Assembly: GCA_037903475.1 (NCBI GenBank)
Contig: JBAJFG010000234.1
Location: 434,001 to 498,000 of the forward strand
Reading direction: 5' to 3'
DNA: 64,000 bases
From: Ancylostoma caninum
Lineage: Eukaryota; Nematoda; Chromadorea; Rhabditida; Ancylostomatidae
The notes under the pieces are model-generated. The model searched no databases. It was not told where the DNA came from and worked only from the letters and a program-made list of their open reading frames with translations. Below are positions 34,105 through 57,541 of the stretch, piece by piece. The position numbers and the translations under genes were made by a program. Each line of letters opens with the position of its first letter. Positions within the stretch are counted from its first letter, which is position 1.

Positions 34105-35373
<1,269 letters not shown>

Positions 35374-40571: not shown

Positions 40572-41506
40572 ATGCATGCAGTAATGAATAGGTTGTTGGA
40601 CGCTGTCAACACTTCAGAAGACGATCAAGAGGAAGAAGAAAATGACGATGATGATGACAGTGACAGCAGCATGGAAACATGGTCAGACAATGTCGTTGTG
40701 CATGATTCTTGGATTTTCAGTACTAATAGTAGAGCCCCTCAAATTTTGTCAGATTGTAAGCATCCGATTGATTTCTTCCCTATGTTCGTGAATGATGGCA
40801 TGCTCAATCTGATTGTCGATGAAACTAGTGGATATGGAATGACAGGCTTGGGTCCCAATGGATGTCCAGGAAATGAAGAGCTTTGGCTTCCGTCTTCAGA
40901 TGGGCATAGTAAAGTTACCAAAGCTTAGAGATTACTAGAGCACTAGACCAGTATTCAGCGGTCATCCAATAGGATCGGATGTTGTGCCGAGGAATAGATT
41001 CAAAAATCCAATCTTCATTTGGCAGACAACGCCAGCTTTGATGGGAGCGACAGACTCTACAAAATTACTCCTTCCATTCACCTATTCAATACGGCTTGTG
41101 AAAGATCCTTCACGCCCGGTGAGGAAGTTTGCATAGATGGATCATTGGTGGCATTCAGAGGTAGAGTGATCTTCCATTAGTACATTCCAAGCAAGTGCCA
41201 CAAGTATGGTATCAAGCTGTTCAAGTTATGTACTAGGGGAGGTTATACATGGAGAACACTTGTGTATGCCGGCAGATACTCGTCAAGGATCGGTTCTGTT
41301 GCAGAGTCTGTTATTATGAAGTTAATGGATGGATTACTCGACGAAGGAAGGCGCTTGTACACATACAATTGGAACACCAGTCTGCCATTGGCTGAAAGAC
41401 TAGTTCAAAGTAGGACTCGTCTCATGGGTATTGTAAGTAGAAACAGAAAAGGGTTGCCGAAGCGCGTCATAGAAAGGAAGCTGAAAAAGGGTGATGCGAT
41501 TGCTCC

Positions 41507-42196
41507 TCTGAACTTTCTGCCCGCGGTGGATCCGCGGTGTGCCCGAGGTGGAGCGTCGGTTCGCCACCGCGGGCATGTGCGGGTCCACCGCGGATGTACT
41601 GCGGCTCCACCGCGGGCATGTGCGGCCCCACCGTGGGCATGTGCGGACCCACCGCGGGCATGTGCGGACCCACGGCGGGTATGTGCGCGTCCACCGCGGG
41701 AACATGCATTTTCAAGGAACTGGTTATTTCTTTCTAAAAATAGTCCTGTATCGAAGACCCTGTCGTGAGGAGGAAGAGGCAAACCCACGATGGCACTGAT
41801 ATTTCATCCTGCAGGCGTTTTTACATCACTGGATTCGAACCCACGTACCTTTTCGAACTCATGTTTGGGAGTCCGCACTCTTATCCACTCGGTCATGCGT
41901 GCATCGTGCATGGGGGTTTTGTTGGCATTGATGACGCAATCAGCTCTACTGCGGGTCCACCGCGGGCAAGTGCGGGTCCACCGTGTGACATGTGCGGGTC
42001 CACCGCGGATAGCCATGTTATTGCGGGTCCACCGCGGGCATGTGCAGGTCCACCGTGATCATGTGCGGACTCAGCGCGCTAGTGACGTCACTCCCGGTTG
42101 TCCACCGCGGGCACGTGCGGATTTATCGCGGGCAACCGCGAGTCCACCGCGGATTGACCTCGTACCGCGGACCCACCGCGGGCAGAAAGTTCAGAG
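41507..42196. mobile_element. 690-bp non-autonomous element with CCGCGG motif arrays, inserted in piggyBac
   Basis: Terminal inverted repeats of about 31 bp (CTCTGAACTTTCTGCCCGCG... and its complement, one mismatch) sit between TC (41505-41506) and TC (42197-42198). Removing the element and one TC joins the two halves of the piggyBac frame exactly, so both boundaries are well fixed. Left array 41517-41703 and right array 41946-42191 hold about a dozen copies of a 20-21-bp unit, CCACCGCGGGCATGTGCGG, all in one orientation apart from the extreme left end. The middle (41704-41945) contains a tRNA-like sequence. No transposase is encoded. Superfamily unknown. Confidence 0.85.
41829..41902 (-). 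other. tRNA-like (pol III A/B box) segment, class II type, pseudogene
   Basis: On the minus strand TGACCGAGTGGATAAGAGTG resembles a D-arm/A box, followed by an anticodon-like stem with an extra-arm-like GAGTTCGAAAAGGTACG, then a T-arm B box GGTTCGAATCC. The 5' and 3' acceptor strands do not pair, so it is not a functional tRNA. It suggests a tRNA-Leu/Ser-derived SINE or promoter inside the array element. Confidence 0.55.
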
Positions 42197-42859
42197 TCAA
42201 CAGAACAAAAGCGGCATTACAGTGCTCAAATGGAGAGACAAGCGAGACATCCTGATGCTTTCTACTACTCATGACGCCGCCATGGGTGAGAATAGAAAGC
42301 CACAAGTTGTCGAAGATTATAATCAAGCCAAACTATACGTCGACACAAGTGACCAGATGGCATCCTACTCCCCGTTTGTCAGAAGGACTCAGAAGGACAA
42401 AAAAGTGGTACATCCGCCTCTTCTTCCATTTGCTCACCCAGACTGCTCTTGTCAACGCGTGGCGCCTATATAATGACAATATCCGGAGAGTCACCTTCAA
42501 TGACTTCAAGATTGAAGTGATTGAGTGTCTACTCGACAACGAGAAGCTGAACGCAACAACAACACGACATAGCTTGGAAGAATTAGCAGGCCCTAAGGCT
42601 GTCACTAGAAAAAGATGTAGCTCCTGCTATCGAAACTGGTCGAAGAAAGAAGGATCTCGCTGTGCAGATGTAAATACCAAAAAAGTCAATACGCGGTGCT
42701 ACTAGTGTAATAAGCATTTTTGTATTGATTGTTTCAACAAATATCATAAAAAGTGCTCAAATTAATTTATCAGATAGTGTAGTTTGGACTTGTTCTATGT
42801 TAAGATGTGAAACATGTAGATGCTGTAACGTTTCATGTGTGAAGATATTATAATAGAAT

Positions 42860-43355: not shown

Positions 43356-43415
43356 TCGTTCTGTCTAGAGTATTTGTAGCACTACTTACAGAAGTTTACG
43401 GCAATATATCAAATA

Positions 43416-43905
43416 GTACTGTGCTACGGTACAAAATGTATGTCAAATTCGTGCTCAGCATGTCAAATAACCCCATTTGCCAATGTTTCACTGAAATTGG
43501 TGAACAAAATGCATCTACAGTGTGTCTACAGTGACCCTATAGTACTGCGCTACAGTACAAAATGATGTCAAATTCGTGCTCAGCATGTCAAATAACCCCA
43601 CTTGCCAAAGTTCCACTGAATTTGGTGAATAAAATGCATCTACAGTATGCCTACAGTAACCATACGGTAACGCTACAGTAGCCTTACAGTACTGCTCTAC
43701 GGTGCAGGACTGATGGTATTCATGTTCAGCACGTCAAGTAACCCCAAAGTTCAAATTTGCAGTAGATGCTGTGAGAAAATACATCAACAGTATCTACAGT
43801 ATGACTACAGTAATCCTACAGTTTCGCAGTTACGGTACAAAATGGATGCCATTTCCGTGTTCAGCGGGTAGAATAACCCCTAGGGGCAGAATTTGGGGGA
43901 GCTCC
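43416..43905. repeat. Tandem array, 3.6 copies of a 125-150-bp CTACAGTA-rich unit
   Basis: Units start at 43416 (GTACTGTGCTACGGTACAAA), 43542, 43689 and 43821. Each has a GTTCAGCA/GCTCAGCA...GTCAAATAACCCC block followed by repeated CTACAGTA octamers. The last copy is partial. It lies between the solo LTR and the DIRS-like element. Confidence 0.85.
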
Positions 43906-44685: not shown

Positions 44686-45482
44686 GAATTGATGACTGGG
44701 TCCGACAAACCCTCCGCCGCTACGAGATACCAATTTCGGCAGTGAGACCGACTTTAAACAAAAACTCACCTAGGAAAGATCCATGTGATTCAAGGCTCAA
44801 AGTAGAAGTTGAAAAGATGCTTTTGAAAGGAGCTATTGGAGAGGTACCCTGGTCGGAAGAGGTCTGGTTGTCTAGCATTTTTGGAATACCAAAAAAGGAT
44901 GGTTCTATTAGACCTATAATCAACCTACGTCCTCTGAACCAGTTCATAGCTCATCAGCACTTTAAACTTGAATCGATTGAGATGGTAAGAGCATGGCAAA
45001 AATCGATATGAGGGACGCATACTTCTCAGCACCCATTTGCATCAAAGACAGGAACTACCTAGCCTTTAGTTACGAAGGGAAGTTGTACAGATTTCGAGCC
45101 CTGCCATTCGGTCTCTGATCGGCACCTTACGCGTACACCAGGCCGGTAAAGCCAGTTGCCGCATTTCTCAGAGAAATGGGGATGCGCTTATTAGTGTACC
45201 TAGACGATTGGATCTTTCTCGCCGATTCAGAAAAGCGACTCCGGCAACAGCTTAGCACAGCCTTAGAACTATTTGGAGATCTTGGGTTCATAGTGAACAC
45301 GGAGAAGTCACAGCTTGAACCTGTCCAGAGGATCGAATTCCTAGGCATGACCACAGATTCAAGATCTTTCCTTTTCGAGGTACCAGAAAAGAAGGTCCTC
45401 ATTATCTCCAGTATAGCTAAGCAGCTGCTATCCACAGGGGAAGGGGTCTCCTTAAGAGCGATTGCTGAGTTCATGGGAAAGT
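44668..45482 (+). pseudogene. DIRS-like reverse transcriptase
   Basis: The frame opens within the end of ORF1 (QWEKIRIDDWVRQTLRRYE...) and reads FGIPKKDGSIRPIINLRPLN, then after a frameshift near 45000 MAKIDMRDAYFSAPI, LYRFRALPFGL, an in-frame TGA at 45115-45117, and the polymerase motif LLVYLDDWIFLAD (45185-45223; the YxDD box reads YLDD). It finishes in a thumb-like region to a stop at 45482. Membership of the DIRS reverse-transcriptase group rests on the DMRDAYF and YLDDW wording. Inactive because of the stop and frameshifts. Confidence 0.85.
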
Positions 45483-46356
45483 GAACTCAATTACTATCGC
45501 CTGTAGGGTCGCCACCTTCTTTCTGCGAAACGTACAAATGTGGTTAGCCAGCTTCTCACTTGCCTCGTCAGATGACTACGAATCCATTCAGGTCATTCCG
45601 GACAGGTGCAGGGCTGACCTGGAGTGGTTCCTCTCCGAATTTCCAAAGTACACGTCAGAACCCATCATCCCTCCAGCCCCATCCATGGTTATTACCTCTG
45701 ACGCTTCAGATCAGGGTTGGGAAGCCTGCAGTGGGGAACAAACAACAAGAGGCAAGTGGACCATTTCTGAAAAGGCATGGCACATCAATGGACGAGAGCT
45801 CACTGCGTGCTTCTTCGGGCTCCGCTGTTTCGCTGGAAATGTGCGAAATAGTACAGTTAAGGTAGAGCTAGACAACACTACTGCTGTCTGGTATCTGAAC
45901 AAACGCGGCGGTACGAAGAGCAGGGCCTTGAACCTGATAGCTAGGACTATTGCAAGATGGTGTCTCGCGCGGGGTATACACATAGTAGCTTGCTATAAGC
46001 CAGGCGCAGAAAACTTCCGGGCAGACGCACTATCTAGGAACTTCGAGGACTCCTCCGACTTTTCCCTGGACCCAATCACAGCAATGTCATTGTTTCAGCG
46101 TTGGGGAGTTCCAGAGGTAGACCTCTTCGCATCTCGTTCAAACACAAAGTGCCAGAAATACTTCTCCTTCCTTCCAGATCCCGGCGCCACAGCGGTGGAC
46201 GCGTTCAAGCAAAGCTGGTTGGGGATCTCCGCTTACGCATTTCCACCGTTCAGCCTGGTGGGCAGGGTGATTGCGAAAGCCGTACGCGAGAAAGCGAAAC
46301 TGATACTGGTATGCCCTCGCTGGCCAACCCAACCATGGTGGCCGCTGGTGCAATAA
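45481..46356 (+). pseudogene. DIRS-like RNase H and downstream conserved region, 291 codons open
   Basis: Continues the pol protein in a shifted frame. RNase H motifs: ITSDASDQGWEA (first Asp), HINGRELTA (Glu), VKVELDNTTAVWYLN (second Asp), ENFRADALSR (last Asp), so all four acidic residues are kept. Then comes the DIRS-specific tail WGVPEVDLFASRSNTKCQ...AYAFPPFSLVGR and LVCPRWPTQPWWP. The open frame of 291 codons is the longest intact piece of this element. Confidence 0.85.
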
Positions 46357-46519
46357 TACAGCCAGGATCGGGTCCAAATTCCGCGTTGTCCGGATCTTCT
46401 TACAGACCCGACAGGCACTCCGCACCCATTACTGCGCAAGGAGACCTTCACACTAATCGCATGTCGCGTTCCAGACCGGGGCTAGCTTCTCGACTATCAA
46501 TACGCATCGCTCCGCAATA

Positions 46520-47882
46520 ATCACTCTACTAGAGTCTGTACAAAAACAGTTCGATGCAACAGAGAAAGCTCTGTTGGCCAGGTGCATGAAAGGCTTCTTC
46601 AGGCTGCGACCTTCAAAGCCGAAATATTTATTTATTTATTTATTACATCACATATGATGTGCTCGATACCAATGACAGTTTACACGACAAATAGAGAATG
46701 TAGGCGAGAAAAGTGTTGAGCATATGCAAAGAAAAAGGTATGAGATCTTCTCAGTATTTGTTAAAATACCCATGTTTTACTACGACATGCTGACAAGCGT
46801 TATCAATTTCTTCTCCCGGTATGTTAGCAGTAATCAGTTGTGTGACTATCTAGCAAGCACGCTCCACGGCGGGTTCTGTATTTCAAGAGCCTCTTTGAAC
46901 TAGTACGAACCGCGGGCGCTATAGGGAGCACGTAATTGTTATCAGTTATTTCATTATGTCTGAAGTCAACAATGAGTGACCTATCAAGCACGCTCCGTGG
47001 CGGGTTCTGTGTCTCAAGAACCTCTTTGAACTGGTACGTACCGCGGGCGCTGTAGGAACACTTGTGACTCGTGACTTTGATGATAGCAGTAACATAGATT
47101 CAGACGCTGACGGTAAGTAGATGTTCTCATAGAGATCTGAACTCATCGATTTCAAAACGAAATAGAGCAACTCAAATACCTTTGATTTGGACTCAACACT
47201 TTCCTCGGTACATAGTGGTATCATGTGACAGAAAGAATAGAAAGAAAAAATAACACTATAACACTATAAAAACTATAAATAACACTATAAATATAACACT
47301 ATATGGGATGTATCAACGGTCCTGTCATATCTGGAAGGGTTGGGACAAAATGATCTTTTAGATCTGAGACAGTTAACCCTGAAGACGGTAATGTTGCTCG
47401 CACTAGTCTCACCCAAGCGAGTATCAGAGCTGACCTTGCTGCGGTTGGACCGTCTGCAACAAGGAGAGAGCAAGTGGGTTTTCTCGCTAGACTACGTGAA
47501 TAAAAATAGACGTGTGGGCACCTCACCACACACAGCAGTGTTTGACACCTTTCCAGATAACAATGTCCTATGCCCGGTAAGCACCATGAAGGCATACATC
47601 AAACGCACCTTACTATACAGACATAAATCTTCAAACTTACTCTTATCCTTCCAAGCCCCTTACGGTGCAGTCACCCCGACCACGGTGTCACGCTGGCTCA
47701 AGGAAGTCTTATCCAACGCCGGAGTCGACTCCCTTTACGGCGCACACTCCACACGGGCAGCGTCCACAACTTCAAAAATGCGCGGAGTGACATCAAAAGC
47801 TATTATGGAGGCAGCAAATTGGTCATCCAAGGGGACTACCTTTGAGAAATTCTACTACAAAGGTTCACCTATTTCTTACTAG
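46520..47882 (+). pseudogene. DIRS-like tyrosine recombinase, split by a 0.68-kb insertion
   Basis: The N-terminal part (46520-46627, ALLARCMKGFFRLRPSKPKY) is separated by inserted DNA from the rest (47304-47882), which reads WDVSTVLSYLEG through SPKRVSELTLLRLD (catalytic Arg), GAHSTRAASTTS (His-x-x-Arg) and TFEKFYYKGS (nucleophile Tyr) to a stop at 47882. All catalytic R-H-R-Y positions survive. Integration by a tyrosine recombinase rather than a DDE integrase is the defining trait of the group. Confidence 0.85.
46628..47303. mobile_element. Insertion inside the recombinase gene, with an internal direct repeat
   Basis: Starts with (TTTA)4 and ends in repeated AACACTATAAAT units (47248-47303). 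Two direct copies of an about 90-bp unit (AAGCACGCTCC...CGGCGGGTTCTGT...CTCTTTGAACT...ACCGCGGGCGCT) lie at 46855-46935 and 46983-47060. It encodes nothing recognisable. ATAT flanks each side, but the frame does not close exactly, so target-site duplication is unproven. Confidence 0.65.
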
Positions 47883-56255: not shown

Positions 56256-57541
56256 CGAGGGCGGTTTGAAAAGTTTCCGGAATGACCGTAAAAGGAAAGT
56301 TCTTTTCAGAAACTTTTGAGGTCTTTTTGTTGGGCAAATCGTTACATGAATATACTAGAAATATCAGGTCAATTTAATGAAAAGCCTGTTTGTGCCAACT
56401 CGTTTACCTCAAGCAACTTCGAGTGTACTTAGTTATGAATAAGCTCGAAGTTCGCGCGGTCATCAAATTTTTTCATCTGGAGGGAAGAACCGCAACAGAA
56501 ATCAAATCTCGCCTGGATGCTGTGCTCGGAGGGTCTTCGCCTTCATTTTCCACCGTAAGTTTCTGGGTGTCAGAATTCAGGCGTGGGCGTAACCAAACTG
56601 GAGACGAACCGCACAGTACGCCCAAAAACAGCTACTACCCCCAGAGATCGTGGACAAAGTGCATGATATGGTGCTGGACGACCGACGTGTAAAAGTGCAT
56701 GAGATTGAGGAGGCCCTGGGCATCTCTCGTGAAAGAGCGTTCCATATCCTGCACAATGAATTGGGCCTGAAAAAACTCTCGGCAAGATGGATTTTCTCAA
56801 TCCGCAGCAAAAGCGCATTCGGGTCCGAAGCTCAGCGAAGTGTTTGGAAATTTTTAATAGGGATCCAAAGGATTTGAAAAGGAGACTTGTGACGGTGGAT
56901 GAAACGTGGATTCATCACTACACTCCAGAGTCAAAAAGACAGTCTAAACAGTGGATTGGACACGGGGAAGCGGTCCCAAAGAAGGCAAGGACCACTCACT
57001 CTGCTGACAAGGTGATGACTTCAGTCTTCTGGGATGTGAAAGGCGTTTTGCTGATTGATTACCTTGAGCATGGCAAAACTGTCACGGGTCAGTATTACGC
57101 AGCGCTCCTCGACCGACTGAAGTCAGCAATTCAAGAGAAGCGCCCAGGAATGGCAAAGAAAAAAGTATTTTCCTTAACGATAATGCTCCTGCCCATTCAA
57201 GTGTCGTCGCTCAACGAAAATTAGCTGAATTAAGATTCGAGATTCTTCCGCATCCCGCATATTCGCCTGATTTGGCTCCCTCGGACTTCCATCTATTTCC
57301 GAATCTCAAAAGTTTCCTCGCTGGAAAAAGATTCCGATCAAACGAGGAAGTGATCGACGCTGTGGATGGGTATTTCGAGGACCTTGAAGAAAGTCACTTC
57401 CAGGAAGGAATCGAGAAGCTGGAGAAATGCTGGACCAAGTCTATTGAGCTTCGAGGAGACTATTTTGAAAAATAAAATATTGATTGAATTGCATTCGTTT
57501 AGTTTTCATTGTCATTCCGGAAACTTTTCAAACCGCCCTCG
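56256..57541 (+). mobile_element. mariner element, 1286 bp, perfect 30-bp inverted repeats
   Basis: Left terminal repeat 56256-56285 (CGAGGGCGGTTTGAAAAG...) and right 57512-57541 are exact reverse complements. TA at 56254-56255 and at 57542-57543 is the expected target duplication. A damaged transposase lies between. Perfect ends next to a frameshifted gene suggest a fairly recent non-autonomous or freshly inactivated copy. Confidence 0.97.
56435..57475 (+). pseudogene. mariner transposase, frameshifted
   Basis: Pieces in order: 56435-56625 (helix-turn-helix region, KLEVRAVIKFFHLEGRTATE); a shift near 56625-56640; VDKVHDMVLDDRRVKVHEIE (second HTH) to about 56790; a shift; then KRRLVTVDETWIHHYTPES with the first catalytic Asp (VDE). 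A one-base shift near 57165 precedes LNDNAPAHSS (second Asp), followed by SPDLAPSDFHLFPN (third Asp, D34D class) and the tail to TAA at 57475. All three catalytic Asp codons are present but no single frame joins them. Family: Tc1/mariner, mariner branch. Confidence 0.9.

What the first reader, a model, noticed from the sequence alone, without database searches (positions are those of the whole stretch)
41507..42196. Array-bearing element inserted in a piggyBac gene with base-exact boundaries
Removing the 690-bp element plus one TC restores the interrupted piggyBac reading frame, which fixes the ends independently of any repeat library. The layout is unusual: 31-bp terminal inverted repeats, then two arrays of a 20-21-bp CCACCGCGGGCATGTGCGG unit in the same direct orientation at both ends, around a middle with a tRNA-like piece. 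A 2-bp TC duplication does not fit the common TA, TTAA, 3-bp or 8-bp rules. The arrays could be binding sites for an unknown transposase.
Basis: partly seen in the sequence, partly recalled or inferred. Interest (0 to 1): 0.85.

Follow-up and report, generated by a model that had tools for sequence, protein, structure and literature searches.

The report
Gene-fragment-carrying hookworm-like DNA transposon family
The 691-base insert is one copy of a jumping-DNA family with hundreds of ends in a hookworm-like worm genome; it makes a 2-base duplication, carries repeat arrays at both ends, and some longer members carry pieces of the worm's own genes, while the enzyme that moves them was not found.

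Summary
The insert is real: one copy of a non-autonomous DNA-transposon family. The window lies in an unnamed 348-Mb genome whose closest named protein matches are Ancylostoma. It holds 327 exact 19-bp ends, reversed control 0. The element is 41506-42196 (691 bp), one base longer on the left than reported, with TC at 41504-41505 and 42197-42198. Three tests agree: an exact 2-bp duplication at 46 of 56 distinct sites (shuffles mean 15.6, maximum 26); six empty sites ungapped at the junction; 44 of 45 piggyBac relatives compared fit 691 plus TC better than 690. The duplicated pair varies (YR in 40 of 46). Copies measure 126 bp to 3.2 kb; 45 of 59 carry a decayed tRNA-like piece; a complete long copy carries SLC12 cotransporter exons beside a tentative JNK-like fragment, as Pack-TIRs do. 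Seven 691-bp copies differ by 1-9 bases, so movement was recent. No transposase was recognised in what was examined; the Transposase_21 search did not complete in 25 tries. A 2-bp duplication is known in animal CACTA/TRC elements, but the CTCTG ends do not match theirs.

The parts
41506..42196 (+). whole element, 691 bp, non-autonomous, no transposase ORF recognised
   Evidence: ends shared with 58 other elements in fetched loci; piggyBac relatives fit removal of this stretch plus one TC in 44 of 45 compared
41504..41505 (+). left copy of the 2-bp target duplication (TC)
42197..42198 (+). right copy of the 2-bp target duplication (TC)
41506..41538 (+). left terminal inverted repeat
   Evidence: 33 nt, 97% complementary to the right end
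42164..42196 (-). right terminal inverted repeat
41564..41700 (+). left array of about 6.5 units of about 21 bp, CCACCGCGGGCATGTGCGGAC; three units inside and near the left inverted end read the other way
   Evidence: TRF; unit positions
41950..42181 (+). right array, same orientation as the left one, irregular spacing (29, 42-43, 73 bp between well-matched units here)
   Evidence: TRF; unit positions
41826..41903 (-). decayed tRNA-like piece (Ser/Leu-like by eye, recalled) with B-box-like 41831-41841 and A-box-like 41885-41895; not recognised as a tRNA by the programs used
   Evidence: motifs, mismatches allowed, in 45 of 59 elements; negative
41181..41505 (+). left piece of the interrupted, already broken piggyBac transposase relic
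   Evidence: PF13843 E 7e-18; frames
42198..42473 (+). right piece of the same piggyBac relic

Best explanation
The insert is a recently moved copy of a non-autonomous, cut-and-paste type DNA transposon family in a hookworm-like (strongylid) nematode. The mobile unit is defined by its ends: CTCTGAAC...GTTCAGAG with about 33 bp of inverted repeat, plus arrays of a ~21-bp GC-rich unit, in one orientation, next to each end. A transposase supplied in trans by an element not yet identified most likely binds the inverted ends and the arrays, cuts the element out and inserts it with a 2-bp stagger. It prefers a YR dinucleotide in a loosely palindromic setting (C at -3, G at -7, C at +5, A at +6). The interior is free to change: a tRNA-like piece in most copies fetched, host-gene fragments (SLC12 exons, perhaps a JNK-like kinase end) in some long ones, almost nothing in 126-132-bp forms. 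Shown: ends, duplication, empty sites, copy number, recency, SLC12-like cargo in a complete copy. Inferred: the trans-acting DDE transposase, the binding role of the arrays, any relation to the CACTA/EnSpm-Mirage-Chapaev group.
For: 327 exact 19-mer ends, reversed control 0. Exact 2-bp duplication at 46 of 56 distinct sites; slid comparisons gave 0-4 of 56; shuffles mean 15.6, maximum 26 in 5000. Six empty sites at 77-90% identity are ungapped at the junction once one 2-bp copy is counted (L026, L028, L031, L039, L065, L075). piggyBac relatives: 44 of the 45 compared, of 103 found, fit 691 plus TC. The seven 691-bp copies fetched differ pairwise by 1-9 bases at different sites. Unit spacing 21-22 bp in 265 of 546 spacings, 42-43 in 74. 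L060, complete with a CA duplication, carries two collinear SLC12A2-like exon stretches. 2-bp duplication in animal TRC/CACTA elements: PMC1636069, PMC4298943 (passages).
Against: No transposase was recognised: ORFs of the long copies were read by eye, and Pfam was run only on seven ORF pieces of L063 and L080 and on one composite plus three ORFs of L064 and L081. 10 of 56 sites lack an exact duplication (mutation, side-by-side copies or rearrangement). Shared ends are partly by selection: copies were collected by similarity to the window copy or by the 19-mer, and both ends had to match within 4 mismatches. 94 of 546 unit spacings are 29 bp, which does not fit simple helical phasing. CACTA membership is weak: ends begin CTC, not CAC or the CCC of animal TRC.
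Confidence: 0.88

Rival explanations
1. The family is a true non-autonomous branch of the animal CACTA (TRC) group, moved by a Transposase_21 enzyme. (This is a narrower form of the best explanation.)
For: 2-bp duplication as in SmTRC1 and Spongebob, and a tandem-repeat region in SmTRC1 (passages); array-rich ends; gene fragments carried by a plant CACTA element (PMC1947982, title and abstract start). One divergent copy begins CACTG (L084).
Against: Animal TRC ends are reported to begin CCC, and plant ones CAC; here 54 of 59 left ends read CTCTGAAC. The Transposase_21 search of the genome did not complete in 25 tries.
Confidence: 0.4
2. Tc1/mariner- or PIF/ISL2EU-type MITEs with relaxed target choice.
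For: TA is the commonest duplication (22 of 46); Harbinger-related elements can make 0-, 2- or 3-bp duplications (passages of PMC12730594).
Against: 24 of 46 duplications are not TA, while mariner duplicates TA (recalled). No 3-bp pattern. Directional 21-bp arrays are not typical of either (recalled).
Confidence: 0.2
3. A retroposed or satellite-like array (tRNA-derived SINE with tandem repeats) rather than a DNA transposon.
For: tRNA-like motifs in 45 of 59 elements; tandem arrays.
Against: Inverted ends at both sides; 14 of 59 elements lack one or both motifs and still have the same ends, most of them with the duplication; 2-bp duplication instead of the longer ones of SINEs (recalled).
Confidence: 0.03
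4. The long copies do not carry captured host genes but are decayed larger elements whose own genes resemble a kinase and a cotransporter.
For: The kinase-like exons stay open and indel-poor in several copies, though L084 has a stop in one; the composite hits only Ancylostoma proteins (7 of 7), as an element-borne gene could. Parental genes were not located (search unanswered).
Against: SLC12 transporters and JNK-like kinases have no known role in transposition (recalled). The SLC12-like stretches are decayed and lie between intron-like sequence, as a captured genomic piece would. The short copies spread without this interior.
Confidence: 0.12

Closest known systems
TRC elements of the CACTA/EnSpm superfamily in animals (SmTRC1, Spongebob)
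   Same: 2-bp target duplication; inverted ends; a tandem-repeat region in SmTRC1; non-autonomous Spongebob copies in several animals (passages read)
   Different: ends CTCTG rather than CCC; arrays beside both ends; no Transposase_21 gene seen (not searchable here); cargo of host-gene-like fragments
Pack-TIRs of animals (PMC8277862)
   Same: host sequence, exons included, carried between the ends of a TIR transposon and, in the multicopy kind, amplified by transposition (abstract and passages)
   Different: that survey reports four multicopy cases in 100 reference genomes plus one in fly populations, a median captured length of 224 bp, and mostly hAT and mariner; here at least 886 of a 1206-base segment recur at 11 places in one genome, L063 itself included, in an unassigned superfamily. 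Parent copies were not located here.
Plant CACTA/En-Spm and Pack-CACTA elements
   Same: subterminal repeats next to the ends that bind an element-coded protein (recalled), and gene-fragment cargo (titles and abstract starts)
   Different: 3-bp duplication, CACTA ends, units in both orientations (recalled)
Plavaka and ESTA (CMCT clade, fungi)
   Same: 2-bp duplications; TA in ESTA (passages)
   Different: Plavaka ends TGT or CATCA; fungal; no arrays mentioned in the passages I read

Membership tests
Non-autonomous TIR DNA transposon (MITE-like) | inverted ends shared between copies | tested here: met
   59 elements; left end CTCTGAAC in 54, right GTTCAGAG in 56 of 59; selection by ends admitted
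Non-autonomous TIR DNA transposon (MITE-like) | target duplication of constant length, empty sites | tested here: met
   46 of 56 sites; six empty sites ungapped at the junction, a seventh gapped; window site 44 of 45 relatives compared
Non-autonomous TIR DNA transposon (MITE-like) | autonomous partner with the same ends | tested here: inconclusive
   from the first 100 of 327 ends: 29 pairs, 25 of them only 132-670 bp, the 4 longer ones without a recognised transposase; 7 of 8 fetched single ends had a partner at 126-799 bp; most other single ends were not followed this way; 62 ends with a different 14th base (control 9) form no pairs of their own
CACTA/EnSpm, animal TRC branch | 2-bp target duplication | tested here: met
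CACTA/EnSpm, animal TRC branch | terminal CCC (or CAC) | tested here: not met
   CTC in 57 of 59 left ends, 54 of them exactly CTCTGAAC
CACTA/EnSpm, animal TRC branch | Transposase_21 gene between the same ends | not tested
   genome search unanswered in 25 tries
Tc1/mariner | TA duplicated at every site (recalled) | tested here: not met
   TA in 22 of 46
piggyBac | TTAA target (recalled) | tested here: not met
Helitron/Helentron | no target duplication, no long inverted ends (recalled) | tested here: not met
Pack-TIR | host sequence inside a complete TIR element with duplication | tested here: met
   L060, CA duplication, two collinear SLC12A2-like exon stretches
Pack-TIR | parental copy elsewhere in the genome | not tested
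   The genome search with L080:1590-6070 unanswered in 7 tries
tRNA gene or tRNA-derived SINE | scores as tRNA | tested here: not met

The most novel reading that the evidence does not exclude
The family is moved by an undescribed transposase type that reads directional 21-bp arrays at both ends and cuts with a 2-bp stagger at YR in a palindromic site. In hookworms it has captured, mixed and spread multi-kb host-gene pieces (kinase, cotransporter), seeding new chimeric genes such as the fused Ancylostoma proteins P0126 and P0127.
Probability: 0.15. Interest if true: 0.82.

Novelty: new variant of a known kind. Interest (0 to 1): 0.52.

Why it matters
Gene capture by cut-and-paste transposons is common in plants but seldom seen amplified in animals: the one survey read here in passages reports four multicopy cases in 100 reference genomes and one in fly populations (PMC8277862). 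A recently active family with arrays at its ends, a clear 2-bp rule and multi-kb gene-like cargo in a parasitic-worm lineage would be a good place to study how animals gain chimeric genes. Its missing enzyme might extend the CACTA group or lie outside it. Genome annotators should also know that such predicted 'genes' can be transposon cargo.

Tried and rejected
Exact 22-mer of the end in viral contigs: 0. The 19-mer unit in genome contigs: 12 stretches, one match each, all bacterial, taken as chance. Transposase by eye: long copies L060-L064 and L080-L084 were translated, wholly or in part; the parts that could be named were SLC12-like and kinase-like. A globin hit at E 0.29 was dismissed. One SLC12-like piece scored PF00324 at E 0.0083, below the family's cut-off (15.3 against 24.6 bits), and another none. 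The JNK reading rests on one 24-residue exon: E 0.017, the 47 sequences listed all JNK; against it, the exon has no Pfam hit, and the Ancylostoma protein P0123, which shares the following exons, hit nothing in the PDB at E 1. Ends followed by a base other than G: 62 against 9 in the control; some are mutated partners of family ends, and no separate paired family appears. Eight unpaired ends were fetched: seven had a mutated partner at 126-799 bp, one (L086) had none within the 4.3 kb held. Codon periodicity across copies: none clear, except an indel-poor stretch around L080 5685-6284. ARAGORN with introns allowed gave long lists of meaningless hits. Rfam hits in L028, L032, L034, L040, L041, L043 and L059 are below the families' cut-offs, as are three in the window. 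Paper searches for this family or for nematode elements with this layout: nothing matching in the listings shown (titles and abstract starts only; some lists were capped).

Full report
WHAT IS THERE. Its reverse-transcriptase piece at 45469-46353 is 89% identical to an Ancylostoma ceylanicum protein, with A. duodenale, A. caninum and Cooperia next; the piggyBac relic is 69% identical to an A. ceylanicum protein. So the host is a strongylid nematode, most likely a hookworm or a close relative. The insert has inverted ends at 41506-41538 and 42164-42196 (33 nt, 97%). The 19-bp unit occurs nine times with up to three mismatches, all nine inside the insert and in the same direction, with a shuffled mean of 0.00.

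THE ENDS. Removing 690 or 693 bases both keep the piggyBac frame, so the frame does not decide. Three independent tests do. First, 59 elements with both ends were found in the loci fetched, 56 at distinct sites; taken as CTCTGAAC...GTTCAGAG, 46 of 56 have identical dinucleotides on both sides, against 0-4 of 56 when the comparison is slid by 1-5 bases and a mean of 15.6, maximum 26, in 5000 shuffles. Second, joined flanks matched uninterrupted copies of the same sequence elsewhere in the fetched DNA at six sites (L026, L028, L031, L039, L065, L075; 77-90% identity), ungapped at the junction when one dinucleotide is kept; a seventh (L067) aligned with gaps and is not counted, and the hits of side-by-side copies (L053, L062) to themselves are artefacts. 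Third, of 103 piggyBac relatives found, the 45 compared (P0128-P0172) favour removal of 691 bp plus one TC in 44 cases and 690 bp in one; the closest has no gap there. The element is therefore 41506-42196 with TC at 41504-41505 and 42197-42198. Caution: elements were collected by similarity to the window copy or by exact 19-mer ends, and both ends had to match within 4 mismatches, so constancy of the ends is partly built in; the duplication and the empty sites are not.

TARGET. The 46 duplications are TA 22, TG 9, CA 7, CG 2 and CT, TT, AG, AA, GA, TC once each: YR in 40. Around them (duplication at -2 and -1) G at -7 in 26, C at -3 in 26, C at +5 in 20 and A at +6 in 22 of 46; the mirror position +1 has G in only 15. 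This is a loose palindrome centred on the dinucleotide.

NUMBER AND AGE. The genome holds 327 exact 19-mer ends, reversed control 0; a first look with the whole element gave 522 candidate places, 40 of them scored. From the 100 ends listed, 29 convergent pairs measure 132-670 bp (25) and 1611-3203 bp (4); 42 ends were unpaired. Of eight unpaired ends fetched, seven had a mutated partner (126-799 bp) and one none within the 4.3 kb held. The seven 691-bp copies fetched differ pairwise by 1-9 bases and sit at different sites, so this form moved recently.

ANATOMY. Units of the array run in one direction at both ends; those within the left inverted end run the other way. Of 546 spacings below 120 bp, 265 are 21-22 bp and 74 are 42-43 bp, but 94 are 29 bp, so helical phasing is at most partial. 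The middle of the window copy carries a tRNA-like piece on the minus strand with A- and B-box-like motifs, present with mismatches allowed in 45 of 59 elements (the sample leans towards the window type). Neither program used accepts it as a tRNA. It is best read as a decayed tRNA or SINE remnant; a Pol III promoter function is possible but untested. The smallest forms (126 and 132 bp) are little more than ends, so nothing in the middle is needed for spread.

LONG COPIES CARRY HOST-GENE PIECES. L060 (3203 bp, CA duplication), L061 (2614 bp, TA) and L063 (2735 bp; flanking dinucleotides differ) share an interior. At least 886 of the first 1206 bases of L063:870-3030 are found at 11 places, L063 included (40 of 48 candidates scored). 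L060 holds two stretches like successive exons of an SLC12A2-type cotransporter. The first, queried from the matching stretch of L080 and also read in L060, lists 32 PDB sequences, all SLC12-family cotransporters, best E 2e-4. The second lists 12, all SLC12A2, best E 1e-4. They are collinear in the target and separated by intron-like sequence. Next to them lies a 24-residue exon whose 47 listed PDB hits are all JNK kinases, but at E 0.017, and, in L080-L084 and L063, a series of further exons whose composite hits only seven proteins, all Ancylostoma. P0123, one of them, has no PDB hit, so the kinase label is tentative. Two of the seven, P0126 and P0127, are fused in the database to a protein-kinase fragment and a weak MFS-transporter match; they may be chimeric genes or annotation artefacts. 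The parental genes were not located, because the search did not complete (seven tries).

MECHANISM. The most likely mechanism is cut-and-paste by a transposase supplied in trans with a 2-bp stagger, the arrays serving as extra binding sites, as the subterminal repeats of En/Spm do (recalled). Shown: ends, duplication, recency, interchangeable interior. Inferred: the enzyme, array binding, superfamily. Because TRC ends begin CCC and these begin CTC, and Transposase_21 could not be searched, I do not file the family as TRC.

NOVELTY. Gene-carrying TIR elements exist in animals (Pack-TIRs; PMC8277862, abstract and passages), but that survey reports four multicopy cases in 100 reference genomes, one more in fly populations, and a median captured length of 224 bp. 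A multicopy, multi-kb case in a nematode with directional end arrays is a new variant. Eight paper searches gave no description of this family in the listings shown.

On rereading the calls I removed an unsupported count from one rival, and qualified the Pfam coverage, the 11-place figure, the Pack-TIR comparison and the SLC12 source locus.

Noticed in passing
window 45469-47882: DIRS-like element (label recalled): an ORF 89% identical to an Ancylostoma ceylanicum reverse-transcriptase protein and, further on, an ORF that looks like a tyrosine recombinase (not tested).
   Followed up: partly
window 56760-57475: Two overlapping ORF pieces that read like a broken mariner transposase (label recalled, not tested).
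   Followed up: no
window 43413-43700: 125-bp tandem repeat (2 copies, 91%) with many CTACAGTA-like motifs downstream of the piggyBac relic.
   Followed up: no
window 35093-35373: 281-bp CA repeat.
   Followed up: no
L065 494-732 and 3722-3982: Two copies of the element face each other with mirrored flanks, as in a 3.5-kb inverted duplication that includes the element.
   Followed up: partly
L053 1258-1261 and L062 535-538: Two family ends stand back to back sharing a single TA between them: repeated insertion at the same place.
   Followed up: no
P0126, P0127 (Ancylostoma proteins): Predicted proteins that join the element's cargo exons to a protein-kinase fragment or a weak MFS-transporter match.
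   Followed up: partly
L064 776-1351 and L062: Another ORF with closely similar stretches in two loci of the family, no Pfam hit for the L064 one; perhaps a further kind of cargo.
   Followed up: partly
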